Assembly: GCA_033065855.1 (NCBI GenBank)
Contig: JAVXUO010001562.1
Span: 186,001-250,000 of the forward strand
Direction of reading: 5' to 3'
Length of the DNA: 64,000 nucleotides
DNA from: Escallonia rubra
Taxonomy: Eukaryota; Streptophyta; Magnoliopsida; Escalloniales; Escalloniaceae
Part shown: positions 9,204 to 64,000 of the stretch, one piece after another
How positions within the stretch are numbered: the stretch's first letter is position 1
How the letters are laid out: every line of letters begins with the position of its first letter
Made by a program: the position numbers and the translations under genes
The notes under the pieces: generated by a model
Databases searched by the model: none
Told to the model about the DNA's origin: nothing
What the model saw: only the letters and a program-made list of their open reading frames with translations

Positions 9204-10983
9204 TGTTAGACCCCTCATATTTAAATGCTCAAAAAAAAAAATTAGAGAGTTTATGACGTAATGGGTATTTTAAAATTCTAATTGTTTTGCGAATATATAT
9301 CTTTTAGGTTTCTGATAGTTACTTACATTCATAGGAGCATAGTTAAGTTCATAAAAGCATCCAAAGTTCAGAAAAGTTTCTAGAAAGAGCCTTTTGAGAG
9401 TTTGATCATTACTTCGAGGTAAGAATTTATTTTCGGATATCGAATTGAGGTTTGTAATTGAAATTCTTACAAATTTTTGTTTTGTTGGAACCCTAATTAT
9501 AACTTTTGGGTATCTTAATTTTTTAGGAATTTTGATTTAATTGATTTAGAAGATCAAAGTTTTGGGTTGATTTGCACAATTGAAGGTAAGGGTTTATCGT
9601 TTTTGAATCAGCGTTGGACCGATTATCTTATGATTGTGAAAATTGATTTCTTTTAGCATCTGATCTATTTTTCTGCCTCGGTTAACAGTAATCTCGTGCT
9701 TAACAATTGACACATTTTAACTGTTAACGTGTACATATATATTTGGTCAGCTTGGAATGTTGAATCAGAACGCTTGGATTTGTAAACTTATCATTCTATT
9801 CATAGATCTAGTCGTAATTATGCCAAGTCGTTAAGACCTTTTGGCTATGTACTATACTAATCATATCAGATTCATATTTATTCACGTGGTGGGTCTTGTC
9901 GGTTAACCATTAATCAATCGTAGTTGCTTGAAATCATGTACTGCACATCTATTTTTTATTTTATTTTTACCGTGTCATTTCCTTTACCAAAGGTTTCTTG
10001 TGGTGTCCACATTTGAATTACTTTAAGCTGAACTTGAATTCACTTATCTTTGGTCGTCTATTGTCAAAATATCATAAACTTTTACTTAAATGTTTGGTCG
10101 TTACTCTTGCCACTTGACCTTATCTCACACTTGAGTAGCACCTGACATGAGCTATATGTCTTTAGGTGAGTGTGATCGGTAGCGACGTTGTCTCAGTAAA
10201 ATTTTAGTGTCTGATCCATTTCTTGAACATGAATAATTATGTACTTCTATGAGCCACGTCACAGTGTATGTGACTTTTTCTGTTTCTGACTTACCCACGT
10301 GGATTGGAACGTGGGCTAGCTCAGTGGGATGAACTAGAGATCGCAATCTTATTTTTTCGGACCTGGTTTCACATGTCAGTGATGGCATGTGTCACCTTAT
10401 TCTGAATGGCTCTCTGGTGTCTGTCTCTGTACAATGATGTATTTTTTATATTTTGAAATTCTATCTTTGTATCAAAATATATTTTGACACTTTAAAATTC
10501 TGTCTCGTATCTTATCCGTTAAAGTTTTGTACCTCCGAAATTTCGTTAGTCAGAATTTTTTTTTTTTGTATCCCCTTTTGGTTGGTCTATTGAGCGACCT
10601 TATTGGGCATTTGGCTCACTTTCTTATTATTTTTCTCTCAGGTGATCAGTAAAAGAGGACTGGATTGCAAGACTAGCTGTGTGATTGAGAGCCAGCAATT
10701 TTATATCAGAGTCAGTATTAGTAGTTTAGTTTTGCATTTAGCTTGGTTATTTTTAGAAAGTACAATAGGAGGACCTATGTGGATTTGAAATTTATTTTGG
10801 AACTCCGTGTCGGAGTAATTTTGATTATATAAATGCTTTAGGCTGATGTGGTATTTATTGATGTATCTTTGGGATTAATTAGTACATGCTCTGAATGACC
10901 AGTCAAGGAGATTTTTTGATATTTTAAGGTTTTTCTGACTTTGTATATTTGATATTAACGCTCCAAATATTCGGGGCGTTACA
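9204..10983 (+). repeat. Element 1, 5' LTR
   Basis: A 1,780-bp LTR starting TGTTAGACCCCTCATATT and ending ...GGGGCGTTACA, directly before the primer-binding site. It aligns with 14439-17053 apart from indels. It contains CCCACGTGGATTGGAACGTGGG-like inverted G-box sequence near 10294, also kept in the right LTR near 16378. No coding sequence is visible. Confidence 0.88.
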
Positions 10984-14438: not shown

Positions 14439-17053
14439 TGCTAGACCCCTCATATTTAAATGCTTAAAAAAATTTGAGAGTTTAGGATGTAATGGGTATT
14501 TTGAAATTCTAATTGTTTTAGGAATATAAATATATATTTTTAGGTGTCTGATAGTTACGTACATTCATAGGAGCACACCAAAGTTCAGAAAACTCTCCAA
14601 AAAATTCCTAGGAAGAGCATTTTGAGAGTTTGATCATTACTTCGAGGTAAGAATTTATTTTCGGATATCGAATTGAGGTTTGTAGTTGGAATTCTTACAA
14701 ATTTTCGTTATTGTTGGATCCCTAATTATAACTTTTGGGTATATTGATTTTTAGGGAATTTGATTTAATTGAATTAGAAGATCAAAGTTTTGGATTGATT
14801 TGCACAATTGAAGGTAAGGGTTTATCGTTTTTGAATCATGGTTGGACCGATCATCTTATGATTGTGAGAATTGATTTCTTTTAGCATCTGGTCTATTTTT
14901 CCGTCTAGGTTAACAATAATCTCGTGCTTAAAGCTTGTAGCTCTTTTTCTTGTTAACGGACTGACTGGATTTCATTATTGTTGACCATTCACTATTACCT
15001 TTTTTTTTTGGTCGAAACTGAAAATGCATTATACTAAAACACCAAGTAGAACCTAAAGAGCACAAACAAATATTTGTCTCTAGAAACAGAGTACCCAAAA
15101 GTACAAACAAAAGGAGTACAAGCATAATCTTGACCCTGGAACATAAACCGGCCAACATGGCCTTGACAAAAAATGAAAAAGATAAGTATTACCATTGTTG
15201 GATTTACAAAATTCAGATCAAATGGTAACAGAGTGGAATAGTTGCAGCGAGGCATCAATTTCAAGGGCCGCTTGAAATGGCAATTTAGATTACTGCCACG
15301 GTTTTCTTCGGATCGAAGGGAGGTAGAGCGAAATCCCAAGGTCGGATCTGAAAGATCCGAAGCTCGAAGGGAGACGATATTCTCCATCTCGTCTAGATCC
15401 GTCCTCTTCCTGCCACAAATCCGCCATATCGGACCCGCGTCAGAGAAGTCAACCCAAAGTAACCGGATCGAAAGTTCGGCGACCATGACGGATCTGAAAA
15501 AAGCCTTTCAGATACGGGGATAGCGAGTGGGAGGGAGTAAGATTGTGACTGAAAGGCTCCCGATCCGTGGGTGGACCATTCACGAGTACCTTGTTAGTCG
15601 GCGTATCTAGAATTTTCATGACACATGACAGAAACCCTTTAATTGTTAACGTGTACATATATATTTGGTCAGCTTGGAATGTTAAATCAGAACCTCCTTT
15701 TTGCTTCTTGGAAACTGCCCGGTACTCCTCTCTGTTCATAGATCAAGCCGTAATTATGGCTGACCACTGGAAGCCTTTTATATTATTACTGACACGTGTT
15801 GTTTGACAATTTGGAGTTGTTTCTCATGTACTGAAATCATAAGTTGCTTTCTTTCTCCTTTTTCTTCTGCCAAGTCATTAAGACCTTTTGGCTATCTGCT
15901 TCCTTTATACTAATCAGATCAGATTCATTCTCTTCATTTATCTCACGTGGTGGGTCTTGTCTTGGTGGGTTGGCTTGTTTCCACTTGCACCATTAATAAA
16001 AATCAATCCAAGTAGTTGCTTGAAATCATGTACTGCACATCTATTTTTTTTTTACCGTGTCATTTACTTTACCAAAGGTTTCTTGTGGTGTGCACATTTG
16101 AATTACTTTAAGCTGAACTTGAATTCACTTATCTTTGATCGTCTATTGTCAAAATATCATAAACTTTTACTTAAATGTTTGGTCGTTATTCTTGCCACTT
16201 GACCTTATCTCACACTTGATTAGCACCTGACATGAGCTATATGTCTTTAGGTGAGTGTGATCGGTAGCGACGTTGTCTCAGTAAAATTTTGGTGTCTGAT
16301 CCATTTCTTGAACATGAATAATTATGTACTCCTATGAGCCACATCACAGTGTATGTGACTTTTCTGTTTTTGACTTACCCACGTGAATTGGAACGTGGGC
16401 TAGCTCAGTGGGATGAGCTAGAGATCGCGATCTTATTTTTCTGAACCTGGTTTCATGTGTCAGTGATGGCACGTGTGACCTTATTCTGAATGACTCTCTG
16501 ATATCTATCTCTGTACAAGGATGTATTTTTTATATTTTGAAATTCTGTCTTTGTGCCAAACTATATTTTGACACTTTAAAATTGTGCCTCGTATCTGTTC
16601 TGTTAAAGTTTTGTATCTGAAATTTCGTTCTTCAGTCATTTTTTTTGTATCCCCTTTTGGTTGGTCCGTTGAGTGACCTTACTGGGCATTTGGCTCACTT
16701 CCTTATTGTTTTTCTCTCAGGTGGTCAGTAAAAAGGGGATTGGATTGCAGGTGATTGAGAGCTAGCAATTTTATATCAGAGTCAGTATTAGTAGTTTAGT
16801 TTTGCATTTAGTTTGGTTATTTTTAGAAAGTACAATAGGAGGACCTATGTGGAATTGAAATTTATTTTGGAACTCTGTGTCGGAGTAATTTGGATTATAT
16901 AAATGCTTTAGGCTGCTGTGGTATTTATTGATGTATCTTTGGGATTAATTAGTACATGCTCTGAATGACCACTTAAGGAGAGTTTTTGATATTTTAAGGT
17001 TTTTATGACTTTGTTTATTTGATATCAACGCTCCAAAAATTCGGTGGGTTACA
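14439..17053 (+). repeat. Element 1, 3' LTR, enlarged by an insertion
   Basis: A 2,615-bp LTR that matches 9204-10983 at both ends. The excess is mainly a retroposon at 15002-15573, plus about 120 bp around it and smaller indels near 15800-15880 that the 5' LTR lacks. It ends GGTGGGTTACA, followed by CCGAT. Confidence 0.85.
15002..15573 (-). mobile_element. Truncated retroposon inside the element 1 LTR
   Basis: On the minus strand the segment ends in an A run (15002-15009 on the plus strand is T). It is flanked by GACCATTCACTATTACCTT (14983-15001) and GACCATTCACGAGTACCTT (15574-15592), a 19-bp target duplication with two differences. A long TSD and A tail are the marks of LINE-driven retroposition. 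Its body holds a 150-codon minus-strand frame with no domain I recognise. It could be a 5'-truncated LINE end or a retroposed transcript. Confidence 0.7.
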
Positions 17054-20981: not shown

Positions 20982-22311
20982 TATGGATTTGTTGGTTTGG
21001 AATTGTAATGGAGCCTCCAAAAATAAGTTCAAGATGGACTTCAGAGAAATTGTTAGAAGATTTAGGCCTTGCGTTGTTGCGATTTTGGAACCCATCATCG
21101 GGTACGATCAAATGGGGACTTTTTCCATGACCTTGACTATAGCGCATCGTGTATTGTCAACCCGGATGGAAGGTCTGGTGGCATCTGGTTGCTGTGGGAT
21201 TCAACACAAGTCGCTCTTGCAATTATTCAAGCTTCAAATCAGGTTATACATGCTACAGTGTCGAGAAGAGATTATGCGGACTGGATCTTCTCAGCTGTTT
21301 ACGCAAGTCTGAACCCGGCAAAGCAAAAACATTTGTGGGAAAACTTAACAACTTTTGTAGCCAATAACCACATGCCTTGGATGCTTTGCGGAGACTTCAA
21401 CGACATCAGTGACTCAAATGAAAGAAAAGGCAAGGCAGATACGCTATAAGATGCCAGAATGAGGAGATTTCGGGACAACATTACTAAATGCAACTTGGTG
21501 GACCTTGGCTGCAACGGCCCCAAGCTTACTTGGACGGATGGTCAAAAAGGATTTGCAAACACTCATAAAAGACTTGATCAAGCCCTAGCGTGCCCGGACT
21601 AGTGCCTTCAATTTCCTGATGCTCAGGTGTACAACCTTCCCATAACTTCCTCTGACCATTGTCCTTTATTTATCAACTCTCCGTGTAAGTTCTCTACTCA
21701 CCGTTTTTATTATAGACCCTTCCGTGTTGAGGCTGCTTGGACGACTTATGAGGATTTCCAAAGAATCGTTCAGGAGGCCTGGAGCACGAACTTCTTGGAT
21801 TTGAACAAGGCTATTCTCACAATTTAGAATGCCTTGAAGCTGATCTTAGAAAGGATTACTTAAATATCCTTAACCAAGAACAACTGTTTTGGTTCCAGAA
21901 GTCAGTCCCTTGAATTTGGTGACCACAACGCCCGTTATTTTCATATCTTGACCATTATAAGAAGGAAAAAGAATACTATCAAAACCCTAAAGACTCCTGA
22001 GGGTAGATGGTTGACCAACCATTCTGAGATCACTAACCATATTTGTGACTACTTTAGATCCCTCTTCAATCCTGGGATTGACATCTTGGATAGGCACAGA
22101 ACCAACTCTGAGAATGTTAACTTCCCTAAATTAAGTGAGGATGATTCGAAGGGTCTTGGAATGCCTATATCGGATATTGAGATTAAGAAAGCATTTTTTT
22201 GATATCAAGGCCTTCAAAGCTCCTGGCCCTGATGGGCTAAATAGCCTATTTTTCCATAACTTCTGGGATACTGTGGGGCCTTCATGTTGTAATTTTGTTA
22301 AGGAATGTTAC
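20982..22311 (+). pseudogene. LINE 2 ORF2, endonuclease and start of RT
   Basis: ORF2 likely starts at the ATG at 20982: MDLLVWNCNGASKNKFK is the usual endonuclease N-terminus. Further motifs are GGIWLLWD (about 21175), FSAVYASLNP, the catalytic GDFND (about 21400), KRLDQAL and SDHCPL (about 21650). The RT follows with WFQKS, FHILTIIRRKKN and the core motif FKAPGPDGLN (about 22215). At least four frameshifts or stops break it (near 21120, 21450, 21825 and 22195). LTR element 2 interrupts it at 22312, inside the RT fingers. Confidence 0.85.
22307..22311. repeat. Element 2 target-site duplication, left copy (GTTAC)
   Basis: GTTAC directly precedes the TGTGATGCCCC start; an identical GTTAC follows the far end at 31260-31264. 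Confidence 0.9.
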
Positions 22312-22739
22312 TGTGATGCCCCGAACCTAGGTTTACGAGGTTATTATTATTAGCGACGATTGTTGTAAGTAAGACGAATTTAGACCTTATGTTAAGATCT
22401 TGCGAGCGATATTAATTGAATCTTTAGCCATGGTCGTTATGAGTTACGTTAATTGGAAATTTTTGGGGGCTATTGTTGAAGCGATACTATTGGATCTTTA
22501 GTATCAATTGTAGTGAGAAATATTATTTGTTGCATTTAGCAAAATATTTTAATAATGACATAAGTTATGAATAATAAAGTTTGTACAATAGATAAATTTA
22601 TGAAAGTGAGTGGGTTGCCTTAGATAATTTATAACTGATGAAGTTCTACTGTTATAATATGATTTGGTCTTAAATATTTATACATATTAAAGCATAAAGC
22701 AAAAAAAAAAAAGAACAGAAAATGAATAGAAAAGAGAGA

Positions 22740-23700
22740 AGAGGGAGAGAAGAAGTGAGGAGGCAGCAGGCCCTAATCGGCAGCGCCACTTCCATCTCCG
22801 GCGTCCCCATCGCCAGCCACGCTCCTCACCGGCAAGAAACTCCGCGGTCCTTCACCGAGCGCCATTGCAACGCCTCCAAATCGCCGTGTCGCTGCCACCG
22901 CCGTATGGGACTCATCGCCGGTCTTCACCGCTGCGATGGCCTTGGACCCAACCCCTACCGATCTCGCCTTTGGCCACCGGCGGCGGCGACACCAAAGGGC
23001 CACCGGGGACGACGTCGGAATAGTCAACAGCCCACCCACCCAAGGGCTGCCGTCGCTAAGCCCAATGTCAGCAGATTGCGAAGGCAGCGCCGACGTGCTT
23101 CGTCGTCGATGGGCATTGAACAGCCATGTCCGGCAACCAACTCATCGATGGCCGCTGACGCAGAGAGAGCGAGAGAGAGAGAGAGAGAGAGAGAGTATAG
23201 GTGGGGTGACCGGTAGGTGAATCGGCAGTGGCGATGCCGATTTAATTGATAGTTGGAGATCGCGGCAGGTGGTGCTTTAGGCGATCGCGATTTGGTGGTC
23301 GATGCGTTGTGATGACGTCGCACCGGTGGATGACGGCGACGATGTTGGTGATTCGCCGGTTTGTGAAGATCGCTAAGGTTGGTGCGTGGCTTGTGACGGT
23401 GGGTTAGCAGTGGTGGTCTTGTTGGTATTGGGTGCACCGGCAACAGTTGGTGCCTAGGAGTTCGCACTAGGATGGAGAGGGAGATTAGGGTGGCCGATCC
23501 TTGCGCCGCGTTCTGCTATGAGACTGGCGATAATTGCAGTGAAACCATGGGTTTGTGGTGATGATGGTTGACGGCAACAACACGGCGGCTTGACACGACG
23601 GTAGAGAACGTTTTATGTTATGTTACCTCCAGTGAGTTGGGAGGTGGAACAGTGGTCGAGAGTGTGGCCGATTAGTGGTAATTGGGGATTGGGGGTGCAT
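22740..23700 (+). other. GC-rich block inside the 5' LTR
   Basis: About 1 kb of clearly GC-rich, CpG-rich sequence in an otherwise AT-rich LTR. Open frames of 90-165 codons exist on both strands, with compositions dominated by Arg, Pro, Ala and His. That is what GC-rich DNA gives by chance; no domain is visible. The other LTR has no counterpart block at the matching position. It may be the transcribed leader or captured host sequence. Confidence 0.5.
23162..23195. repeat. GA microsatellite
   Basis: A (GA)n run with one GAGC interruption inside the GC-rich block. Confidence 0.9.
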
Positions 23701-24836
23701 CTAAGGTGGAACTTGGTGGTTGAGGCGGCGTTAGCACTTAATATTATTTTGATTTAATGAGTTAAGATTAAAGAATTTTGGTAGCACTCTGTATAAATTA
23801 TGAAATGGGTTGTTGTGGGTGCCTTTGCTCTTGGTGAATGAATTGGAATGAACGAGATGGTTATTTGGGTGTGGAATCGTAGCAACGATGGTGGTGGGCG
23901 TGCGTGCATGTTTGTATGTGCGTGAATGTGTACTATGTACAAGGTGTATATACAGAGTGTGTCGGTAGGTAACAGGGTACAATAGTTTTGTGTGCGCGCA
24001 CCGGTAGGTGTACGTGTTTCATGTGTTTAGGCAAGTGTGAATATTGTGTAGGCGTGGTTGTGGCTGGACGATAACGCGTAACAGGAGTACATGTGGGACA
24101 CTATTGCATGAGGAGTGCGGTTGTGTATATTATAGCAATATGACATGCTCGATGGGTTAGTGACTTCAAGTTAGTTGAGAGAGGCTCGAAAACAATGATG
24201 AAATGCAGTGAATGGCATGGTGAACTGAGCACGATTTTGGAAGGGTTGTGTAGCGGGCGGTCAGATGCGGCGTCGGAGTCGTTTGAGGAAATAACCAACA
24301 TGAATCATCAATGATGCCTTCGGGTCATAGTAAAGCTGGGAATATGGAGATAAAAAGAATGGCCCTAACCATTCTTTTAGCTAGATGTAGCAGTGAGATT
24401 GTTGCTCCAGAGACTTCGATGCGGGAAGTGCGTAGCGTCAAGTAAGTGACCCTTGATTCAACTAGTATTTTTATATGCAACGTATATGTTTATCTACTGT
24501 TAAAAATATGTTATTTATTAGTATTGACCGTTTTAAGTACGTTTAACTGCTCTGGCATAAATTACCAAAAAGGTTTTAGTGTTTTATTCTCGTCAAAGAA
24601 AAATCGGACCAGCATGTAAATGATGTTTTGCCTAGAAACTGAAATGGAACTCGGATTTGAAATAATCAGTGCAAGTGAGATGTCTTGGTATTTGACATTT
24701 TTGTGAATATTGAAGAGCTTGAAAACTATCAAAATGAGAATGGTTTAGCATCAATTGATGAGTAATTGTATTTACGATGAACCAAAAGATCTTATTGTTG
24801 ATTCGATTGCTGTGCCCCATATCCACGGGGGAAAGT

Positions 24837-24978
24837 GGATTCCGGGTCCTGGTCAACGGGACCATACGTTGACGCACAGTACTGTTGCACCGTGGTTCGC
24901 CCTTGCGTCCACACTTTGTTATCCTGGGTGGAGGAGGGATTTTGGGTCCTAGTCAGTGGGACCATACGCTGACCGCAG
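24837..24978 (+). promoter_or_regulatory. Duplicated stem-loop motif in element 2, 5' LTR
   Basis: Two related copies of about 43 bp start exactly 100 bp apart (24837 and 24937). Copy 1 can pair GTCAACG (24852-24858) with CGTTGAC (24867-24873) around an 8-nt GGACCATA loop. Copy 2 pairs GTCAGTG (24952-24958) with CGCTGAC (24967-24973) around the same loop. Between copies one A-T pair becomes G-C, and one C-G becomes T-G, so pairing survives. Role unknown: RNA fold, packaging, transcription end or enhancer are all possible. Confidence 0.55.
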
Positions 24979-25618
24979 TATACATGTTATGATTAATTGT
25001 GATAGTCCTTGGTGAAAACTCTTTATTGATCCCATTCTAATTCGAGAATCTTTTGTTGCAAGTACATATATATACGTGGATATGTTGAGCATATTTATTT
25101 TGGTAACATTGAAATTTTATTGTGAAAAAAGGAAAACCATGGCATAGTCGAAGCCCCCAAAATTTTATTTTAGGGATATGGCATGTGTATTTACTGGGCC
25201 CCCAGCTCACCCCTTTTTATAAATGTTTTCAGGTGAACACCTAGATGAACCTCAGTACAATGAGAGTAATGAACATGGAGCCGCAAGAGGTGTTCGTTAG
25301 GATGTTGGTTTAAGCCTTGAGAAATTTGTAGAACTGCCAGTTTATTACTTGAATTGTTCGTAGCTGAATCCCAGGAGGTCTCCTCTTAAATAAGTGCTAT
25401 TAGTCTTTATGGAGTAATTTAGTTGAGATAATTTTGGAAAGAGTTGTAAAGGTATCTTTAGAAATTCATGTTATGGTATTGGTTTAATGTATGGTTTTAA
25501 AATTGTGTACATGCTTAAGTAAGGCCTGGCAGAACCCTAATTAGTTGTCTGAATGGGTCTGCGGCCGGTCACGTGCCTAGCACATGGGCTTACCCGTGGG
25601 TTTGGGTCGTGACAGAAA

Positions 25619-25630
25619 TGGTATCAGAGC
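25619..25630 (+). other. Element 2 primer-binding site
   Basis: TGGTATCAGAGC, exact for initiator Met tRNA, lies 4 bp after the LTR end. It fixes the plus orientation and the LTR boundary. Confidence 0.93.
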
Positions 25631-27560
25631 ATTACGGTTTTGGGATATTAGAGTTTAAGTAATGATTTCGCTGGTTAGGTTTTAGAACCCTAAGTGATGA
25701 TCCAATTTTATTGGTGAAGTTTCTTTAAGTTGCTATTGGTGATTATGACTTATGTTTCGAAGGTTATAGATATCATTAGGAAGACTCATTTTCATTGGGC
25801 GAAGCTGGAGAGATATGCTTCTAGTTGCCAAAAGCTAATCAAGGTTGTAGAACAACATTAGCTTAATAGCTAGATAGAGATAATGTAAGACTGTGGTTTC
25901 TGGAAGTTCTTGTAGCTTGTAACCCGGCGCTCTTAGCTCTTAGTTCGTAGCTCTTAGTTGCTACCGTTAGAGCGCTAACTGAATTTTTTTTTGTTATAGT
26001 GAGGTTTATAAGTTCACAAGTTTTTTTGAAACAAGGTTTCATAGAATAGCAGTACTTTGAATTGAAATGCGAGATTGGGACGAGTAAATATTTGTCTGAG
26101 AGCATAGAGCCACTGGGTTGACTTTGCTATGAATGCACACGAGAATTTGGCTTTAGATCTTATATCCTCATTTCACTAAGTACAAGTTATGTGCATATAT
26201 TGGACTATGGCAAAGGTGAATTGAGATTATGAGTAATGATGTTTTCAGCGTGCATTTTGGGTTTTAGCTGTAGCCCAGGGTCCTACATACATTAATTGGC
26301 GTGCATGACTTTATCTGATTTCGAGGAGTGAACTACCATAGGATAAAGGGATGTAATTGAGGACTAGAACTAGTTGCTCACCATCTTTGACGGGATTAAG
26401 TATTTTATTCTTTTAGGGCAAAAAAAAAATAAAAAAATGCAACTTATGTCTATAGAATGGTTATGATTTGAGCCACGAAGTTAAGAGTATCTATTTTTTT
26501 TATGTGAAATATTTGAGGACTTTTGAATGGTGGAAGTGTCTTTTAAAGTTGGCGACTAGAGGAGTATAAACGGCGATCTAATATGTTCGAGCTAAGCGTT
26601 ACAATTTCACATAAAAATTTTAAAGGTTAGATTTTCATAGGCGTAAATTATGGTGCGGTGTTGATAGGTATATGATTCTATAGAGTCATGACTAGGCTAA
26701 TAAGAGTTATAGATATAACTCAATGTGGGATCCTTTAGAGTGAAAGTCATATGAGATAATTGCTCAGTATCTTAGTATACCATACGCTTAAAGTTAAGCT
26801 TGCTACTATTAAGTAGACCGTGCGAAAGAATATATTGTGGTTTATTATCTGAAAAGCGTAGCAGAAGCATGATGATTAAGAATTTAAATATCTGGTTGTG
26901 TTGGAGTGGAGTAAGTATAAGTGATGACCTGGTAAGTTAGAGCTTAGCGTAACGACTTAAATAGGAACTGTGACGTTTAACGTTGTGAGCATAATGAAAT
27001 TCGAGGTCGAATTTCTTTTAACGGGAAGAAGATGTAATATCCTGGTCTCAAATTGGTCTTGTGGTTGATTTTGATGAATACACCTGATGCTCTAGAAATT
27101 TTGATCACTTGGTGATACTTCAAGGTGTAACGATGATTTTCATTGTATAAATGGAGAAATGTAGAGATAACATTTACAACTGACGAATGTTCTAATTTAA
27201 GATTATTAATCTTAGACGTATTTTTGGTTGGTGAATTGAAGTGAGTTTAAAGTTAAGTGTTATGATGGGAGATGAGATCAGACATCATTGAATGCAGAAA
27301 TCTAATAACACAAAGTTTCGAGGTACGGATTATCAGTGGATTAAAGTGTGTTAAATGCATATCACACATTTCATGCTTTAAGGTCTTTGGGTGCATGTAC
27401 TTATCAAGTCGCTTGAAATTATATCCGAGTTTGATTGTGAACATTTAGATGGATTTAGTCGTGTAGTACACTTGAGGTGTTATGCTGATGGTTATCAGAG
27501 ATTAAAATGATTAAGATCAGCTGTACAGGGAACACCAAATTTCGAGGACGAAATTTCTTT
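25631..27560 (+). other. Element 2 interior, non-coding
   Basis: No gag, protease, integrase or RT motif and no frame above 80 codons. At 27004-27033 there is TCGAATTTCTTTTAA, a purine run, then TGTAATATCC, which copies the layout of a polypurine tract followed by an LTR start. The real junction lies about 540 bp further on. Similar internal junctions occur in element 1. Confidence 0.6.
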
Positions 27561-27573
27561 AAGGAGGAGATAA
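27561..27573 (+). other. Element 2 polypurine tract
   Basis: AAGGAGGAGATAA precedes the 3' LTR start TGTAATACCCC and follows TTCGAGGACGAAATTTC, the same layout as in element 1. Confidence 0.75.
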
Positions 27574-28088
27574 TGTAATACCCCAAACCTTGGCTTAACC
27601 GGTTATTATTACTTTAGCAACAATTTCTAAGAGTGATGTTCTTTTGAGTTTTTAGCGACGAATTTGGGGAGCATTATAATGGTGATCTTTACGACAATTT
27701 TAGAATCATAAGAAAAATTTAACGGTAACAGATATTATTGATATTGATTAATGTCGTTGGCAAGGATTAGCGTTAACTGGTATTTTCTATAGAAACCTTT
27801 AGCAACAAATTTAACATCATAAAATATAAGTTGTGATAACAATTATGAACAACACAGATTGAGGTATTAGTAGCAATTAGCGAATTAATAACTTATGACA
27901 TTTTTTTTAGCGACAGGTAGTGTAGCGGGTTAGCGTAACAGTCTTTAATAAATTTGCTAACATATGGTTCATCGTAAGTATTTTATTCTTTGGACCATTT
28001 TTCGTAATAATAAGTTGGGTTAGAAGTTTTAGCGACAAATGGGTTTATAGGGCTTCTTTGCAATTTCTAACTAGGGTTTTCACCCCCT

Positions 28089-28100
28089 TATATAAATATA
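28089..28100 (+). promoter_or_regulatory. Candidate TATA box of the element 2 LTR
   Basis: TATATAAATATA lies about 515 bp into the LTR, followed by a GA-rich, leader-like stretch (28140-28200). The position suits a U3 core promoter. The transcription start was not determined. Confidence 0.45.
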
Positions 28101-29936
28101 TAAGATTGTGGGGGTGAGCAGCCACCCTTCTAGCCGTCAGACTCCATCTTGTTCACGGTAGAGAGAGATAAAGAGAAGAGAAAGAAGAGAGCTTGAAGGG
28201 GGAAATTTTTCGGCAAGCTCTGGCAATCGCATAGGAATTTCGGTAAGCCCTCTTACAGATTTACTTAGCATATTGTAGGCTTATTGTCGAATCGCATATA
28301 TGTGTATCGCCTGAGTTCGAGAAGTTGTGAGGGGTATCGTTTGGCCAGCCATGGTGGCTGCCGTGTTTATGTGAGTGGGGCTGCAAATTTCAGTATATAT
28401 GTATAGGTTCGTGTGTATGCATGTAATCCGTATGTGGGCTTAAAAGAGAAAGAAAAACGTGGGTTTACAGGGGACGAATCGCTGCCATGAGGCAGTTTAA
28501 ACTGTCGGTATTAATATACATATAGGTAATGGGTCTGTGAGAAATGGTGAGTTATAAGTACTGGTATATGCGGATGGGAACAACTATGTAGGTGTCGTAA
28601 ACATTCGAATGTGTGAGTGGGTATAATAGCGGCGTGAAGGGATATGGGTTTGGAACAGAACCGATGATAAGGGCCTGCTTTGCACCTTGTGGGATTGTTG
28701 TCATGGTAGCCATGGTTGCGCAAAGGATGAGTGGAGCTTGGCGCATGGAAATGCCGTGATAGCAGCTGGACGTGGGAAGGTGTTGGAGAAATAAAGAAGA
28801 GGGAACAGCAGTGGGTTTGTGTGTGTTGTGCGCACAGGTGAGAGGTGTGCGTACGCACTGTGTAGGCTGCTATGCAGCTGTGTATGCAAATGTGCGTGTG
28901 TTTGTAAGAGTGTAATAGGTGGGTGTGATTTGTATTGTTGGTGTGTGGGTTTCGGTGGGATTTGGAATATAGTGTTTAGTGCAATGTGTGTATATATATG
29001 AAGTGGTGAATGAAAAAGGAAGAAAGAAAGAGAGACGTACAGTGGGCATGGTGGCTGAATATGGGAATGTAATGTGTGGGTGTTATTGTATGTGGGTATG
29101 TGTTTAAGAAGGCCAGACAGCCGTGAGAGTGTGGGTGTAATGTATACAGTGAGTGTAACAGCAAGTTGATGGTGTTGCTGTGGGTTGGCAAGGATGATGG
29201 GGTATTAAATGGTGAGGCAGTGATGTTAGAGTAAAAAGATAGATGAATGTGCATTATAGTGGGTGAAACGTGTAGTGTGGGTGTGTGAGAGAAAGTAGCC
29301 AAGGCTGCCTTGGAGCAGGTGTAGTGCTGTGTGTTTTTCTGTGTGGTTTAGTGGGGGTCCAAGAGTGCTTGTAATGGGTACCTGTGTGTTTATAATGTGA
29401 GAAGTGGTCTTGAAGCATGAGTTTGACAAGAAGATGCGGCAGTAGCTTGTAAATGGTGATGAAGAGTTAAAGTAATGGTTTATGAGAATTTGGGTGTAAA
29501 GGCAAGCTAATGGGTATTATGACTGAAGTGAGTTCATGTAAGAACAGTACTGAGTAGGCGTGAAGAAGGAGAAGACCGCTTAGAGAGAGGGAAAGTCCTC
29601 GTTTTAAAGTTGGAGTTAAAAGTGTCGCTAAAAAGCTATCTTATTCCAGCAGTCTCTTTTCGAATTTTTAAAACATATCTAGAAAATGTTTTGGGCAAAA
29701 CTCAAAGAAGTAACTTAGGTTTATTTTTCAAGACCTACACACAGTAAAAATGTTAGAATTTTTGGAGCTTGGGAAGCGTGTTAACTAATTTTATGCGTGA
29801 TAGAGACGTTAGTGTATTATAGAATAGTAAACTAAGTTATTAAATTCTGAAACTCCTACAATAATCTTATGTCGCTAAGATAATGTAGTGTCTAAAGTTT
29901 CGAAATATTTTAAGGTCGTTTGCTATGTTAGCGGCG

Positions 29937-29986
29937 TAACGCCCGAACGGATATAGCGTAACGCCCGAACGGATATAGCGTAACGC
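29937..29986. repeat. 22-bp tandem repeat
   Basis: The unit TAACGCCCGAACGGATATAGCG is present twice, followed by a partial third (TAACGC). It is CpG-rich, unlike its surroundings. Confidence 0.85.
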
Positions 29987-30481
29987 TTCATTATTACGAT
30001 AGTTATTAAATTAGTTCCAAGGACCTCTTCTGAATAGATTCAGACAAAGTACAAATAGGTAATTATACGGAAGTCGGGGGATGGTTGGGAAAAGGTTACT
30101 CATCTATAATTAACATAAATACCTAAGCGTGCCCGAGCGTCAATAAATAACATCTGTATGATTTGTTATTTAGGTTTTGATAGTCAAGAGCTAGGGCCGG
30201 CAAGTGAGCAAATATCAGAAACAGATTTTGAGCGAGGTAAGTACCCCTGCCATGTTCCTCTGTATATTTATTTGCAAAACCTATGATATGTATTTATGAT
30301 TTGATCATTTAAAGTTTAAAGTTCTATTCTGCATATGTTTATTTCTAAAGTGTTTTATTTGAAACATAAATTGAAAAGAAATGCCATGGATTGTTGTATG
30401 AGTATTTGAAATATGATCGATTTCTGTGGAACGAAATGATAGTTGACTGTGTTACTGCGCCCCATATCCACGGGGGAAAGT

Positions 30482-30623
30482 GGATTCCGGGTCCTGGTCA
30501 ACGGGACCATACGTTGACGCACAGTACTGTTGCACCGTGGTTCGCCCTTGCGTCCACACTTTGTTATCCTGGGTGGAGGAGGGATTTTGGGTCCTAGTCA
30601 GTGGGACCATACGCTGACCGCAG
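30482..30623 (+). promoter_or_regulatory. Duplicated stem-loop motif in element 2, 3' LTR
   Basis: Identical in sequence and 100-bp spacing to the pair at 24837-24978, as expected from the shared 801-bp segment. See that entry for the pairing. Confidence 0.55.
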
Positions 30624-31259
30624 TATACATGTTATGATTAATTGTGATAGTCCTTGGTGAAAACTCTTTATTGATCCCATTCTAATTCGAGAATCTTTTG
30701 TTGCAAGTACATATATATACGTGGATATGTTGAGCATATTTATTTTGGTAACATTGAAATTTTATTGTGAAAAAAGGAAAACCATGGCATAGTCGAAGCC
30801 CCCAAAATTTTATTTTAGGGATATGGCATGTGTATTTACTGGGCCCCCAGCTCACCCCTTTTTATAAATGTTTTCAGGTGAACACCTAGATGAACCTCAG
30901 TACAATGAGAGTAATGAACATGGAGCCGCAAGAGGTGTTCGTTAGGATGTTGGTTTAAGCCTTGAGAAATTTGTAGAACTGCCAGTTTATTACTTGAATT
31001 GTTCGTAGCTGAATCCCAGGAGGTCTCCTCTTAAATAAGTGCTATTAGTCTTTATGGAGTAATTTAGTTGAGATAATTTTGGAAAGAGTTGTAAAGGTAT
31101 CTTTAGAAATTCATGTTATGGTATTGGTTTAATGTATGGTTTTAAAATTGTGTACATGCTTAAGTAAGGCCTGGCAGAACCCTAATTAGTTGTCTGAATG
31201 GGTCTGCGGCTGGTCACGTGCCTAGCACATGGGCTTACCCGTGGGTTTGGGTCGTGACA

Positions 31260-33855
31260 GTTACTCTAAGGGGTCTATGCCGAAAGAGAACAACATTGCT
31301 TACTTGACTTTAATCCCTAAAGTGGACAATCCCCAAGATATTTCCAAGTTCCGTCCCATTAGCCTCCTCAACGTGTCTTACAAGGCGGTGTCAAAAATTT
31401 TAGTCTCTAGACTTAGGCCTTTTTTGTCTAATATCCTTAGCCCCACTCAGAATAGCTTTATACTTGGCAGACACACCATTGATAACTCTATTATTGCTCA
31501 AGAAATCATTCATACCCTTAAGTACGCTAAAAGTAAGAAAGGTGGCATGATTTTTAAAATTGATCTTGAAAAGGCTTATGATCGATTAGATTGGGCTTTT
31601 ATTGAACTACATGTTTAATTTTCCTGTTAATTGGATAAAACTCATCATGAGTTGCATATGTGGAGCAACTATATCTAAGCTATGGAATGGTAGTCCTTTG
31701 CCCTATATTCCCCTTGGTAGAGTTTAAGGCAAGGCGACCCCCTTTCTCCTTATATTTTTGCTCTTTGCATGGAGAGATTCTCCCATATGATTGACCTTTC
31801 TAATATAACCAAACAGCGCTTGGGCTTAAAAGCTTCATCCAATGGCTCTTTCATTTCTCATCTTTTTATGCGGATGATTTGTTACATTTTTGCAAAGAAA
31901 GTGATCATAACTGTGATATTTTCATGTCTCTTTTAAATAAATTTTGTAGCATGTCGGGGCAAAAGGTTAATCAAAACAAGTCTAGATTGTTCATTTCCCC
32001 CAATGTGCCTCACCATAGAGTCGTGGCCTTGAGTAGTAGATGTGGTATCCCTTTAACCCCTGACATAAGGGTCTATCTTGGTACTCTCATGGTCCACAAG
32101 AAAGTGTGTCTTTATGATAGTGTGATGAAAAGAGTTCAGAGTAAACTTATGGGTTGGAAAACTAAAATTTTATCCCTGGCAGGTCGCGCCACCCTTGTTC
32201 AGGCTGTCACTTCTTCCATCCCGAACCACGTGATGCAAAGTCATATCCTGCCCAAAAAGGTTACTAACATTCTGGACAGACTTAATAGACAATTTCTTTG
32301 GGGCGACTCCGATAAGGCTAAGAAAATCCATCTCGTTGATTGGTCCAATGTGTGTCAATCTAAAAACAAAGGTGGGCTGGGAATTAGAGAGGCGCATGAG
32401 AATAACATTGCCCTAATTTCCAAACTTAGTTGGAAGCTGATAACTAACGATAATTCTTTATGGGTTAAAGTCATTAAAGCTAAATATTCCAAATCTAACA
32501 ATCCGAGACTTTGGCCCCAAAAAAAGCGGTGTTCTAATATTTGGCGTGGCATCCGCACTACCATCCCGTTTATGACCCAAGGAATCAAATGGAGGATTCA
32601 AGAAGGTCTCCTCATTAACTTTTGGAAGGACTGGTGGGTGGGAGAGAAACCCTTGCAAGCTGATCATAGCGGGGATGATCCTGTGACTGTCAGCCAATTC
32701 ATAAATCCCTTGGGGGGATGGAATATTAATGCTCTCAATCAGAATGTCTCTACTCAGGATCTTGAGTTGATTAACAAGGTGCATCTTCCCATTATGGCTA
32801 TTGAGCAAGATGCCCCCTTTTGGGGTATAAAAAATGGCATATTTTCTACTTCCAGTATGTACAAACTCATTAACAATGAAGATCAACACAGCCCCACTGA
32901 AGAGAAGTTCAAGTGGATTTGGAAGCTCAAGACCCCCCAAAAAATCAAAAATTTTCTTTGGACTATAGCCCACAAAAGACTTCCATCAAACGAGCTCCGA
33001 TGCATCCGAAATATAGCTAGAAGCCCGATATGTGATAGATGTAAAAGAGAAATTGAGACCACGGCGCATATTTTAAAAGATTGCTTGAAAGTTAAATTTA
33101 TATGGCAGAAACTTATTCCCAACCGGGATCTCCAGCTGAGTAATAATGATGATATTTTTGTCTGGATCAAGAGAAACATGACTCAATTCCCTTCCAAATA
33201 CTTCTTGGGCCTCCCATGGAAGCACTGTTTCACTGCTTTTCTTTGGCAAAATTGGAAAGAAAGAAATAAAGAGGTTATTGAAGGCCTGCCTTTTGATCCC
33301 TGGAGTGCCTGGAAAAAAGCCCTTGATTTTGCTAAAGAGTTGTCCAAAATCTTCCAATCTCAGGACCTACGACATGTCAAAGCACCTATACTCATTAAGT
33401 GGTCTTGTCCTTGTGCAGGGAATCTGAAAATCAACATGGATGGAAGCGCTAAAGGTAACTCCCAAGGTGGATTTGGCGGACTTATTCGGGATGAGACGGG
33501 ACAATTCATTGGAGGTTACTTTGGCAACATTCCCACAAATGATGCCCTAGAAGTGGAACTTCATGGAATCCTTCAAGCGCTCCAAATCAGCAAGGATAAG
33601 AACCTGCTATGCGTTACAATAGAGACAGATTATCTCACTGCGGAGCAACTGATATCACAAAGACAAGCTAAGAGAAGCTAATCAATGTGCGGACGTTTTA
33701 ACCACCATGGGTGCTAATCAGGATAAGGCTTTTGTGTATTTTGATCATCCCCCGGAGGAACTTGGAATTCTGCTGAAGGCAGATGCTGACGGGGTTTGTT
33801 ATCCCCGTGTTTAGTCTGGTGTATTTTTAATTTTCCGTGTAACCAATTTTTTTTT
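31260..33855 (+). pseudogene. LINE 2 ORF2, remainder of RT, zf-RVT and RNase H
   Basis: After the GTTAC duplication the RT resumes: NIAYLTLIPK, FRPISLLN, FKIDLEKAYDRLDW (first catalytic Asp, about 31560), RQGDPLSPYIF (about 31725) and the catalytic YADD at 31867-31878. A 600-codon frame (31879-33681) then covers the RT thumb, the zf-RVT zinc region (CDRCKREIETTAHILKDC, about 33030-33080) and an RNase H (INMDGSAKGNSQGGFGG, with a conserved Glu in EVELHGIL). A deletion and frameshift near 33665 lead to DKLREANQCADVL and a stop at 33812. Two further breaks lie near 31617 and 31725. Confidence 0.88.
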
Positions 33856-44855: not shown

Positions 44856-45300
44856 GTACTACTGTGTCTACAATCATATGCACGCACTCTGTGACAGTTG
44901 TTCAGTAGATGTATATGTTTCCTATAACAACACAGCTTTTGACGTGCATTACCACCCATGCATAAAAACTTGCAATTTTTTAAAACGTGGCGACTGGAAA
45001 ATTCCGAGCTCATAACCAGTCGAGCCCTAATTCGACCAGTCGGTGGCACCGAGAAGAAGGGTCGTGTCTAATGGTGACTGATTTAAAACCCCTGAACTAG
45101 CGAAAGCCAGGAAAAACAAGGGAATCCGAAAAGTGGTGCGTTGTGGCCAGAGACCTCTTTCAGTGTCGAGGCATTTTTGGTGTCTATTTGGGGCGAGGAC
45201 GATCATGGGTTTGAGATTGGAAAATGACTTGCTGGTTTCAAAACCGTAAGTTATTCTTCTGTATTTTTGCTGTGATTTGGGGCGAGGACGATCATGTTAT
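44856..45300. other. 3' flank of the SNF2-family gene
   Basis: Contains the presumed 3' UTR. A 20-bp phrase, TTGGGGCGAGGACGATCATG, occurs at about 45187 and 45277, 90 bp apart. Nothing else is recognised. Confidence 0.4.
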
Positions 45301-46575
45301 TTTAAAGTGTTTTTGAGGTGTTAATAATCAAAATTAGGGCCGAATGTACGAGTGTATTGATTAGGTAGAGTTTTATAAGGTGTATGATTGGTTTCTTAGT
45401 TTTATAAAGTTTACAAATACTGGATAAATTATACCTACGAAATTTTCAATAGTAAATGATAGGCTAAAGTTAAATAATAAGGGAAAAAAAGAAAAGAACA
45501 TCAAAACAAAGGTGGAAAAAGAAAAGAATACCAAAACAAATAGGATTTTTGAATAATCAAAATTAGGGCTTAATATACGAGTGTATGAGTATAGTGATTA
45601 TGTAGAGTTTCATAAGGTGTATGATTGCCTTTTTATTTTGTAAGGTTTACAAATATAGGGTAAATTATACCTACAAATTTTCTAATAATAAATCATAAGA
45701 AAGAGTTAAATATGGTAGAAAAGAAAAAGGACATCAAAACAGATATGATTCTTGAATTGTATATATCCAATTTAAAAAAGTTGGTCTCTAAATGAAGAGA
45801 TTAATTAAGTTGGGGAGACTATCACATGTAAAGTTGAAGTATATGTGACAAAAGGAGAAGATTCCTAAACAAATCCTATGTGGCGCAAAGATAGAGTTCT
45901 AAAAATCATGTTACTCTAAAGTGCTTTTGAGGTGTTAATAATCAAAATTAGGGCCTAATATACAAGTATAGTGATTAGCTAGAGTTTTATAAGGTGTATG
46001 ATTGTCTTCTTATTTTTATAAAGTTTATAAATAAAGGATAAATTATACCTACGAATTTTTTAATAATAAATTATAAGAAATAGTCAAATAAATAAGGTAG
46101 GAAAAGAAAAAAACACCAAAACAAAGGTGGGAAAAGAAAAGAACACCAAAGCAAATAGGATTCTTGAATCCTATAAGGTATTAATAATCAAAATTAGGGC
46201 CTAATATATAAGTATAGTGATTAGGTAGAGTTTTATAAGGTGTATGATTCGCTTCTTAATTTTATAAACTTTACAAATATAGCGTAATTATACCTACGCA
46301 TTTTCTAATAATAAAAATCATAGGAAAGTGTTAAATAGGGTAGAAAAGAAAAAAGATACCAAAACAAATAAGATTCTTGAATTGTACATATCTAATTTAA
46401 AAAAGATGGATTCTAACGAAGAGATCTATTAAGTTAGAGAAGTATTAAATGCAAAGTTGAAGCTTACGTGGCAAAAGGAGAAGGTTCCTAAAAAATTCTA
46501 CGTGTCGCAAAGATAGAGTTCTAAAAATCCTACATATCACAATTTTAAACGAAAGTTTCAGCTATATATATATAT
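45300..46575. repeat. AT-rich repeat cluster A (four diverged copies)
   Basis: The phrase TTAATAATCAAAATTAGGGC and what follows (GTATAGTGATTAGGTAGAG, TTATAAGGTGTATGATTG, TAAATTATACCTACGAATTT, then an ACACCAAAACAAA block) recurs starting near 45317, 45550, 45935 and 46180. Copies are about 75-90% similar by eye. The array is non-coding and may be Helitron-derived; see 46576. Confidence 0.75.
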
Positions 46576-46620
46576 ACTAGTTCAGTAATTCGGACAATGC
46601 CTGGGTGAGTTATATTTAAA
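46576..46620 (-). repeat. Possible Helitron 3' terminus
   Basis: Read on the minus strand, a degenerate hairpin (CCCAGGCATTGTCCG) is followed by AATTACTGAACTAGT. Plant Helitrons end in a short hairpin then CTRRT next to a T, often in TA-rich DNA as here. No Rep/helicase gene and no matching TC start were found, so this is tentative. Confidence 0.3.
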
Positions 46621-57703: not shown

Positions 57704-57964
57704 TGTCACGACCCGAACCCACGAATGGGCCCATGAGCTAAAATGTCAACCCAAAAAGTATCAAAGGTTCTAAGAGGACTCCAATCCTCTAGCAGTTGCG
57801 TCCCATTACCACATCCTTGTGACTCTCATGAGTGTCGGGTCCATCTAGATAATCGCCTAAAAAGTATAAAAGAATGAGCTAGGGCCCAGTAAGCACACTT
57901 GCCATATCCCAAAATAGTTTTGAATTTTCATTCGCAGGCCATGGTTTTCAATTTAAAACTGGTA

Positions 57965-58567
57965 TACTGACACTCTCATACTAGGGCTGGGCTGTATCAT
58001 TATGGATAGTGAGGGGAACCGCATTGGCACTTTTAGTTTCACGGGAGTAGCCCACAGTGCACTTATAGCTCAAGCTATTTCACTATTCCACGCCTGTCGT
58101 TGGGAATTTGCACATAATGTTACAAATTTTTGGTTTCATACTAATGCCCTCCAACTTTTATTATAAATGATGGGCCTTAAGGAGCTGGGCAGTGAGGTAA
58201 AGCCAGTTTTATATGATATATGTTTTATCTGCTCCTTTTTTGTTCAGTGCGGTCAAACTACCGGAGACCCTGAGATTCTACACGAGGCCAAAGCGTTTGC
58301 GCAAATGATAGTTGCAGCAAACCATTCTACCAACTAGGAGTGGTTCTCGATCTTAGGATGCAAATGGGAGGGGTTGCACTTATGTTCTATCATGATACAC
58401 CGATTATTACAAGAAGTTCTTTTGTATTTTGTAATTGCTGCTTCACCTTCGATAATCTAGACTATGAGTATTTATACTAAGTTGTGTAGTGCCATGGTGA
58501 TCTTATATAATGTAATATGACTCTTTTACTTTTGATATAAATGCAATCCTGATCATTACCGAAAAGC
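57965..58567 (+). mobile_element. 5'-truncated LINE (RNase H end) inserted in the element 3 LTR
   Basis: 603 bp flanked by a perfect 12-bp target duplication, TTAAAACTGGTA (57953-57964 and 58568-58579). The other LTR at 63557-63570 has the empty site (CTAAAACCGGTAAG). The plus-strand sequence encodes an RNase H-like piece, IIMDSEGNRIGTFSFTGVAHSALIAQA, with later ILHEAKAFAQMIVA and a stop, then a 3' UTR ending TAAATGCAATCC. This is the standard product of incomplete LINE reverse transcription. Confidence 0.85.
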
Positions 58568-58720
58568 TTAAAACTGGTAAGTCAGTTAATAAGAGATACT
58601 ATGCATATACTTTGTGAATACATATCATTGTTTGAGAGAAACTACTTTTGAGAGATGGAAAACAATAGCACGTAAATCATCAAGTAATTGTTCGATCAAA
58701 TAATTCTTTACAAGGCATGC

Positions 58721-58855
58721 TGCGATTAGCGTTTGCTTCCACTGACTTGGACCCGAAATCCTACTCATGACATAATTATTGTGGACGCAGGGGCGACCAC
58801 TAGTAGCTACTGTGTGTCAATGTTCAGTCCCTTTGACTAGGACCCGAAGTCTAAC
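58721..58855 (-). promoter_or_regulatory. Duplicated motif in element 3, 3' LTR, matching element 2
   Basis: On the minus strand, copy 1 (58855-58810) contains GTCAAAGGGACTGAACATTGAC and copy 2 (58761-58721) GTCAGTGGAAGCAAACGCTAAT. Both align with the two copies in element 2 and keep the order and roughly the spacing. In copy 1 five pairs of the stem remain (GTCAA/TTGAC); copy 2 is more decayed. Confidence 0.5.
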
Positions 58856-59582
58856 TTTCTCCCGTTAGATCTGGGGCACAACAACCATAAACAGCATTTC
58901 ATTTCATTCTAAAAAACAACATACATAACAACTAGTCGTAAAACATTCCATGGCAACTCATTTTTTTCCTTATCAAAATTAAAACAAAAGCAATAACATT
59001 TCGAAAGGCACGTCTAACTCGTATGAATCATGTATATAATATGCATTGAAAATAGGGTATAAGCGAGGACATGGTAGGAGTACTTACCTGAATCACTAAC
59101 CGGGTTTAGCTCTTGTTTGTAAAAACGGTCCTAACCCTCTTTTACCGGAACCTAAAATGATAAATCACAAAGATATCAATTCTCAACGCTCAATTATGCA
59201 TGTCCACTAAATTTCCCCCAAGTAAGGAAAACTACCAAAACAAAACTTTTCACTGACTGCATCAACTAACTCCTTCGCAGCCTTGGAAAAATCTGAAAAT
59301 TTCTCACATCGTAGATTTCTTAAAAATAACTAGGGTTTCTTCTTTACACTTTATCAGATTCTGCTGTGAATTATTTTTAAAAACTCACGCAATGGATTGT
59401 CGGAAAATCAATGGTTTTAGCGACACTTTGCAATCCAGCGTTAACCCTAACTTAACCTATTGTTTACCCCTTACCTTTCTCCTCTCGGCAGCCCCACCCC
59501 CCTCCCCCTCTAGCTCAAACTACACCATACCCACTTACAGCAAAACCAACTTCCACTTCTCTTTACCCACACACCTATATAC

Positions 59583-63085: not shown

Positions 63086-64000
63086 GACCACGACCCGAAC
63101 CAACGGATGGGCCCATGAGCTAGGTCCGTGACCGGCCGCTGGCCTATGAGACTTCCACCCAGGGCTTTGTCGGGCCTTACTGCAACTTGTACACAAAAAT
63201 CTATTACCAAGCACTAGGTCTAAACCATTCACAAAGTTACCAAGGATCGTACTTATAGATTCCTCAAAGTATGTCTCAAATAACATCCTCAATATTCAAC
63301 TAACAAGACTAACTGAAATAATATGGAGATCTATGCTCCGAAAATTTTTTAAAATATAATTTAAGCACTACAATGTCAACTCAAAAATTAACAAAGGTTC
63401 TAAGAGGACTCCAATCCTCTAGCAGTTGCGTCCCATTACCACATCCTTGTGACTCTCATGAGTGTCGGGTCCATCTAGATAATCGCCTAAAAAGTATAAA
63501 AGAATGAGCTAGGGCCCAGTAAGCACACTTCCATCACCACATGCCATGGTTTTCAACTAAAACCGGTAAGTTTATTTATAAGAGAAACTATTTTTGAGAG
63601 AAACTATTTGAGAGAAACTACTTTTGAGAGATAGAAAACAATAGCACGTAAATCATCGAATAATTTTTCGATCGAATAATTTTTCACGAGGTATGATGCG
63701 ATTAGCATTTGGTCTCATAGACTTGGATCTGAAATCCTACCCACCTCAGGATAATAATTATTGTGGACGCAGGGGCGACCACTAGTAGCTACTGTGTGTC
63801 AATGTTCAGTCCCTTTGACTAGGACCCGAAGTCTAACTTTCTCCCGTTAGATCTGGGGCACAACAACCATAAACAACATTCTTTCTCATTCACAAAAGCA
63901 ACGTACATAACAACTAGTAATAAAACATTCCACGACAGCTCATTTTGTTTTTTAATCAAATAATTAAAACGAAAGTAGTAACATTTTGAAAGGCTTTAAA
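63086..64000 (-). repeat. Element 3, 5' LTR, cut by the window end
   Basis: Begins ACCACGACCCGAACC where the partner has TGTCACGACCCGAACC, so the terminal bases have changed. It contains the segment near 63130-63375 that the other LTR has lost, plus the GAGAGAAACTATTTTTGAGAG direct repeats near 63580-63640 and the duplicated motif at 63697-63837. Confidence 0.75.
63697..63837 (-). promoter_or_regulatory. Duplicated motif in element 3, 5' LTR
   Basis: The same two-copy arrangement as 58721-58855. Copy 1 is at 63837-63792, nearly identical to its partner; copy 2 at 63737-63697 has further changes (GTCTATGAGACCAAATGCTAAT). The right ends of the copies are 100 bp apart, as in element 2. Confidence 0.5.

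What the first reader, a model, noticed from the sequence alone, without database searches (positions are those of the whole stretch)
24837..24978. Duplicated stem-loop motif in LTRs, 100 bp apart, with a compensatory base-pair change
Seen directly: two copies of a 43-bp motif start exactly 100 bp apart, each able to form a 7-bp stem around the same 8-nt loop (GGACCATA). Between copies an A-T pair becomes G-C and a C-G pair becomes T-G, so pairing is kept while sequence changes. The arrangement recurs at 30482-30623 and, diverged, on the other strand in element 3 (58721-58855, 63697-63837). Inference: the fold rather than the bases is selected, so this could be a twin RNA structure in R/U5 (dimerisation, packaging, read-through or 3'-end control) or a paired protein site.
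Basis: partly seen in the sequence, partly recalled or inferred. Interest (0 to 1): 0.72.

Follow-up and report, generated by a model that had tools for sequence, protein, structure and literature searches.

The report
Folded RNA patch in retrotransposon LTRs
A plant jumping gene carries, inside both of its end repeats, a short block that looks able to fold into a forked RNA structure, part of it duplicated; the block is real and oddly well preserved, but that its folding matters is only moderately supported.

Summary
In detail: two motif copies 100 bp apart, each a 7-bp stem with loop GGACCATA, lie in both LTRs of element A and, diverged, in element 3.

Better supported is a ~110-nt domain around copy 1: a three-way junction (P1, HP1, HP2) plus a hairpin. 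It is the predicted minimum-energy fold in both LTRs of A; on a hand-fitted alignment 28 of 30 pairs remain in element 3, including a replaced HP1 stem. The consensus fold beats shuffles on an unfitted alignment (3/500 with three rows, 21/500 with two). A 121-nt identical run between element 3's LTRs covers it. Splice-like signals flank it, and A's two LTRs switch from unrelated to nearly identical within its first stem.

Best guess: a leader signal of unspliced genomic RNA (pairing/packaging, template switching) in a non-autonomous Tekay-like element. No relatives outside the window were found; its own genome could not be searched.

The parts
22312..25614 (+). 5' LTR of element A (TGTGATGCCCC...GTCGTGACA); target duplication GTTAC at 22307-22311 and 31260-31264
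27574..31259 (+). 3' LTR of element A (TGTAATACCCC...GTCGTGACA), preceded by purine tract AAGGAGGAG at 27561-27569
25619..25630 (+). primer-binding-like site TGGTATCAGAGC, four bases after the LTR end
   Evidence: exact match; the scan as a whole, with 2 mismatches allowed, is at chance level, so its position is what counts
24809..24880 (+). module 1, three-way junction: P1 24809-24815/24874-24880, P2 24816-24818/24844-24846, HP1 24821-24840, HP2 24852-24873
   Evidence: part of the MFE structure of the 110-nt domain; energy z -2.9
24892..24912 (+). hairpin between the modules, GTGG..CGC[loop]GCG.CCAC; its 7 pairs are unchanged in element 3
24922..24980 (+). module 2, partial second copy (HP2-like stem 24952-24973; HP1-like stem weak, judged by eye)
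   Evidence: no unusual stability of its own
30454..30625 (+). same block (modules 1 and 2) in the 3' LTR; HP2 copies 30497-30518 and 30597-30618
58714..58882 (-). diverged block in the 3' LTR of element 3; HP1 58869-58850, HP2 58837-58816, weaker second copy 58746-58725
63690..63864 (-). diverged block in the 5' LTR of element 3; module 1 identical to the other LTR, second copy 63722-63701 decayed
30237..30877 (+). intron-like segment of the 3' LTR: donor GAG|GTAAGTA, branch-like CTCAC, acceptor TTTTCAG ending 30877; the block lies inside
   Evidence: motif evidence only
24442..25232 (+). matching segment of the 5' LTR, with weaker donor CAA|GTAAGTG
   Evidence: motif evidence only
57857..59087 (-). 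matching segment of the element 3 3' LTR: donor CAG|GTAAGTA, acceptor TTTTTAG
   Evidence: motif evidence only

Best explanation
The hairpins belong to a conserved structured RNA domain of about 110 nt (three-way junction plus hairpin, followed by a partial duplicate) in the 3' part of the LTRs of non-autonomous, Tekay/Del-like Ty3/gypsy elements of a plant genome. Shown: the sequence block, its island-like conservation, the predicted fold, and the abrupt switch of LTR identity in its first stem. Inferred: that the fold forms in RNA; that the flanking GT...AG signals are a real, optional intron, so that the domain is kept only in unspliced genomic RNA; and that it serves there as a leader signal for RNA pairing or packaging, where reverse transcriptase also tends to switch template.
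For: The proposed 30-pair structure is the MFE fold of the 5' LTR domain of A and, minus one C-A mismatch, of the 3' LTR domain; 28 of 30 pairs are standard in element 3 on a hand-fitted alignment, HP1 being replaced by a different 6-bp stem around an 8-nt loop (P about 0.015 in a simple mutation model). On an unfitted MAFFT alignment 3 of 500 column shuffles reach the consensus energy with three rows and 21 of 500 with two. Between A and element 3 LTRs the significant BLAST matches are this block (74%, E=1e-19; extending ~80 nt further upstream in A's 3' LTR), the acceptor region and the 3' LTR end, besides low-complexity matches. In element 3 a 121-nt identical run covers module 1 and the middle hairpin; 249 of the other 329 columns match (0/20000 shuffles). 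AGGTAAGT occurs three times on both strands of the window, twice at the matching place before the block. From 24814 to the end A's LTRs differ at 1 of 801 columns, upstream they are not alignable, although the insertion is single, with GTTAC on both sides and the LINE frame open when the flanks are joined. A non-autonomous element must keep its cis signals (general knowledge); A's interior gave no Pfam match in the 10 of 13 listed ORFs that were scanned.
Against: Only two independent lineages (A and element 3). HP2 shows no significant covariation, and element 3 has a C-A in P1 and an A-A in HP2. HP1's four double changes depend on aligning from the loop outwards; the more parsimonious alignment gives one double change, one base gained in each arm and one broken end pair. 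The z of -4.95 on the hand-fitted alignment is circular. Element 3's own MFE is another fold, 2.9 kcal/mol lower. The whole A block has z -1.4 and element 3 about 0; sliding windows along the LTRs do not single the block out. Antisense folds are about as stable as sense. The donor match between A and element 3 is weak by itself (26 nt, E=0.01) and two other short matches of like strength were not examined. No transcript, splice or packaging data.
Confidence: 0.33

Rival explanations
1. The inverted repeats are DNA sites: paired binding sites for a host factor that controls LTR activity, and the pairing in RNA is incidental. (GTCAAC/GTTGAC resembles WRKY W-box cores; recalled, not tested.)
For: Antisense and sense folds are about equally stable; the arms hold TTGAC in copy 1 of A and of element 3; an 8-nt spacer would suit a protein dimer (inference).
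Against: HP1 arms differ between A and element 3 while pairing stays, which a sequence-specific protein would not need; G-T pairs (A copy 2, P1) are good only in sense RNA.
Confidence: 0.25
2. The fold has no function: a conserved LTR segment with a partial tandem duplication, in which short stems arise by chance; the identity pattern comes from recombination or gene conversion among family members.
For: 17 perfect 7-bp/8-nt hairpins in the window; HP2 covariation within shuffles; copy 2 loses pairs in element 3; hybrid LTRs form by recombination during transposition bursts of Onsen (PMC5668417, passages).
Against: The island is conserved where most of the LTR is not alignable; consensus fold reached by 3/500 and 21/500 shuffles.
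Confidence: 0.27
3. A splicing or 3'-end control structure: the domain sits in an LTR intron and sets how much RNA is spliced or where it is cut and polyadenylated.
For: It lies between donor-like and acceptor-like motifs in A and element 3; element B, a third family, has a similar acceptor motif and two adjacent hairpins about 300 nt before it.
Against: No evidence that splicing occurs; B's LTRs gave no BLAST match to those of A or element 3.
Confidence: 0.15

Closest known systems
Retroviral packaging/dimerisation leader between major splice donor and gag (recalled, no paper read on it here)
   Same: Structured RNA downstream of a donor, so that it is present only in unspliced genomic RNA (inferred here)
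   Different: Here inside the LTR rather than after the primer site; no palindromic loop in HP1 or HP2 (by eye); plant Ty3/gypsy
RTE of IAP and MTE of MusD (RNA transport elements; PMC12786077, passages read)
   Same: cis RNA structures that export full-length LTR-element RNA; [quoted passage not shown]
   Different: Mouse elements; their place relative to the LTR is not in the passages I saw; no sequence comparison made
Introns of plant LTR elements: Ogre and EVADE (PMC12786077, passages); spliced Tyran and Varan of sunflower (PMC7730604, passages)
   Same: Splicing of plant LTR-element RNA is known
   Different: Reported there as making subgenomic RNAs or truncated GAG isoforms; here the candidate intron lies inside the LTR and is unproven
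Stem-loops in long R regions of retroviral LTRs (PMC3601003, passages)
   Same: Residual conservation in long R regions linked to stem-loops
   Different: Stated there for gammaretroviruses, class III/spumaviruses and lentiviruses
Recombinant LTRs of Onsen/Copia78 (PMC5668417, passages)
   Same: LTRs recombined at the first template switch, in R
   Different: Here the two LTRs of one insertion differ from each other upstream of the junction

Membership tests
Tekay/Del-type chromovirus (Ty3/gypsy) | pol with chromodomain integrase | tested here: not met
   Element A: 0 Pfam matches (E up to 0.1) in 10 of its 13 listed internal ORFs. Neighbour element B shows SH3_Tf2-1 (E 5.9e-24) and a Chromo match below the curated cut-off (18 against 25.1 bits); its third piece gave none.
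Tekay/Del-type chromovirus (Ty3/gypsy) | Primer site TGGTATCAGAGC after the LTR and TTCGAGGACGAAATTTCTTTAAGGAGG tract before the 3' LTR (that these mark the group is recalled) | tested here: met
   25619-25630 and 27541-27567 in A
Large non-autonomous LTR element (LARD-like) | Long LTRs, non-coding interior, target duplication | tested here: met
   LTRs 3303 and 3686 bp, about 2 kb interior with longest listed ORF 89 aa, GTTAC on both sides
Known RNA families (Rfam 15) | Score above gathering threshold | tested here: not met
   0 matches in the window; 0 up to E=5 in 24780-25020
Conserved structural RNA | Covariation beyond relatedness | tested here: inconclusive
   HP2 within shuffles; HP1 suggestive; too few lineages
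H-type pseudoknot | Loop pairs with 5' flank (GGTCC:GGACC at HP2; CCCC:GGGG at HP1) | tested here: inconclusive
   HP2 complementarity complete in both A copies, kept with one G-U in element 3 copy 1, two pairs lost in each element 3 copy 2; no compensatory change. The HP1 one was seen by eye only. The plus-strand scan gave 20 unlisted matches.
Retroviral packaging/dimerisation signal | Needed for encapsidation or RNA dimers | not testable with these tools
   no transcript or particle data

The most novel reading that the evidence does not exclude
Plant chromovirus-type LTRs contain a conserved intron whose interior carries a forked, partly duplicated RNA domain that marks unspliced genomic RNA for pairing and packaging, and at whose base reverse transcriptase switches template, producing insertions whose two LTRs have different front parts.
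Probability: 0.13. Interest if true: 0.75.

Novelty: new variant of a known kind. Interest (0 to 1): 0.42.

Why it matters
A review states that RNA export of plant LTR elements has not been studied directly (PMC12786077, passage); to my knowledge their packaging signals are little known too. A mapped candidate domain with matching donor and acceptor motifs makes this testable by long-read RNA and chemical probing. The two-faced LTRs also warn against dating such an insertion from whole-LTR divergence.

Tried and rejected
Catalogued RNA such as ribozymes: no Rfam match. Further copies in the window: none beyond the eight used. Relatives elsewhere: viral contigs was scanned four times and genome contigs twice. 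The only two pattern hits (L001, L002) were read for about 260-270 bases around the match; they look like GC-rich coding sequence without the rest of the block, so I treat them as chance. The protein query matched 2 stretches by peptide pattern, none confirmed. Element B as a third family: no BLAST match of its LTRs to those of A or element 3, so it was left out of the pair counts; in the six-row alignment it aligns poorly.

Unusual stability of the whole block: not supported (z -1.4 in A, about 0 in element 3). Among 81 windows of 80 nt in A's 5' LTR and 77 in element 3's 3' LTR the block is not the extreme.

Literature: eight searches were answered. In the listings and in the passages read from six papers I saw no description of this block or of an intron inside Tekay LTRs; the listings were cut and most subscription papers are not held.

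Full report
What is there. The window looks like plant DNA (a LINE reading frame and a SMARCA3-like gene, judged by eye; names recalled). Element A is one LTR insertion: 5' LTR 22312-25614, 3' LTR 27574-31259, TG...CA ends, a primer-binding-like site four bases after the 5' LTR and a purine tract before the 3' LTR. GTTAC flanks it on both sides, and joining the flanks gives an open LINE frame, so it is one clean insertion. The interior is about 2 kb; of 13 listed ORFs of 40 aa or more the longest has 89 aa, and the 10 that were scanned gave no Pfam match. Element 3 on the minus strand is built alike and is cut by the window's end. Element B (9.2-17 kb) has an integrase SH3 domain and a Chromo match below cut-off, with the same layout of LTR end, primer site and tract; this is why I call the group Tekay/Del-like, a name that rests on recalled motifs.

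The observation. It is right in its letters and coordinates. The two copies in A are 100 bp apart, each with seven pairs around GGACCATA. In element 3 the copies are 91 and 97 bp apart; copy 1 keeps 6 of 7 pairs and copy 2 keeps 6 and 4 of 7. A covariance model from five distinct copies finds eight places, all used to build it or identical to those used; the next has E=2.5.

Poorly. With three substitutions in the 14 stem bases all pairs survive in 3.7% of random trials, 21% if, as seen, all are transitions. Over five distinct rows, HP2 together with the possible GGTCC:GGACC pairing has 85.0% of cells paired against 83.7% in shuffles (185 of 500 reach it), and the covariation score is reached by 136 of 500.

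A larger fold. Just 5' of HP2 lies HP1: ATCCAC[GGGGGAAA]GTGGAT in A, TCTAAC[GGGAGAAA]GTTAGA in element 3. With an outer stem (GCTGTGC/GCACAGT) they make a three-way junction, followed by a hairpin GTGG..CGCGCG.CCAC. This 30-pair structure is the minimum-energy fold of the 110-nt domain in A's 5' LTR and, less one mismatch, in its 3' LTR; standard pairs number 30 of 30 (A 5'), 29 of 30 (A 3') and 28 of 30 (element 3) on a hand-fitted alignment. Counted from the loop outwards, four HP1 pairs differ on both sides and still pair. A more parsimonious alignment has one double change, one base gained in each arm and one broken end pair; in a simple simulation a six-pair stem survives such changes in 1.5% of cases. 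On an unfitted MAFFT alignment, 3 of 500 column shuffles reach the consensus energy with three rows (two of them nearly identical) and 21 of 500 with two; on my hand-fitted alignment 0 of 500, which is circular. Against this: element 3's own best fold is another one, 2.9 kcal/mol lower; single-sequence stability is notable only for the A junction (z -2.9, 10 of 1000 shuffles), not for the 110-nt domain (z -1.35), module 2 or element 3; and the antisense strand folds about as well.

Conservation. Between the LTRs of A and element 3 the clear BLAST matches are this block (74% over 177 columns; 71% over 257 from A's 3' LTR, reaching about 80 nt further upstream), the acceptor region and the 3' LTR end, besides low-complexity matches; the donor site is a weak match (26 nt, E=0.01), and two other short ones of like strength were not examined. 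Around the block element 3's two LTRs match in 370 of 450 columns; a 121-nt identical run covers module 1 and the middle hairpin, and 249 of the other 329 columns match (0 of 20000 shuffles give such a run). Selection or a local gene conversion could each explain it.

Intron-like setting. AGGTAAGT occurs three times on both strands of the window (13140 plus, 30235 plus, 59089 minus); the last two are matching sites upstream of the block in A's 3' LTR and in element 3. A's 5' LTR has a weaker CAAGTAAGTG. A motif TACTGGGC..CTCA..(T/C)AG follows the block in A and element 3 and occurs, with one change in its 5' LTR, in B. TATA-like sequence lies about 520 bp into A's 3' LTR, well upstream of the block. 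There are no RNA data, so start site and intron are inferences. A review says that plant LTR elements generally lack introns, with Ogre and EVADE as exceptions (PMC12786077, passages); spliced isoforms are also reported for two sunflower elements (PMC7730604, passages).

The LTR switch. From 24814 to the end A's LTRs differ at 1 of 801 columns; upstream they are not alignable apart from about 50 bp at the start (77%). The last mismatch, 24813, is in the 5' arm of P1. Since the insertion is single, the difference probably arose during reverse transcription from two different RNAs, or by later gene conversion. Recombinant LTRs formed at the first template switch in R are documented for Onsen (PMC5668417, passages). 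One element cannot prove that the structure causes the switch.

Mechanism. I favour a leader signal of unspliced genomic RNA (pairing or packaging) that also favours template switching, at 0.33. Rivals are no function of the fold (0.27), a DNA-protein site (0.25) and a splicing or 3'-end control structure (0.15). Attempts to find relatives in other collections failed, and the window's own genome could not be searched.

Noticed in passing
22312-24813 versus 27574-30458: The front 2.5-2.9 kb of the two LTRs of one insertion are not alignable beyond the first ~50 bp, while the last 801 columns differ once: a two-faced LTR pair.
   Followed up: partly
10294-10337 and 16378-16421: Element B's LTRs have two adjacent hairpins (CCCACGT[8 nt]ACGTGGG, then CTAGCTCA[6 nt]TGAGCTAG, the second imperfect in the 5' LTR) about 300 nt before the acceptor-like motif; by eye the stretch CTAG-TCAGTGGGA resembles A's copy 2.
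   Followed up: partly
58569-59009 versus 63558-63994: Element 3 LTRs: 121-nt identical run in an otherwise diverged stretch; by eye the 3' LTR also holds roughly 600 bp (about 57950-58560) absent from the other LTR.
   Followed up: partly
63086-63100: Element 3's 5' LTR end reads GTCGTGGTC instead of GTCGTGACA, and the primer-site scan (2 mismatches allowed) lists no site after it.
   Followed up: no
45291-50153: AT-rich region with many diverged repeats, some 190-290 bp apart.
   Followed up: no
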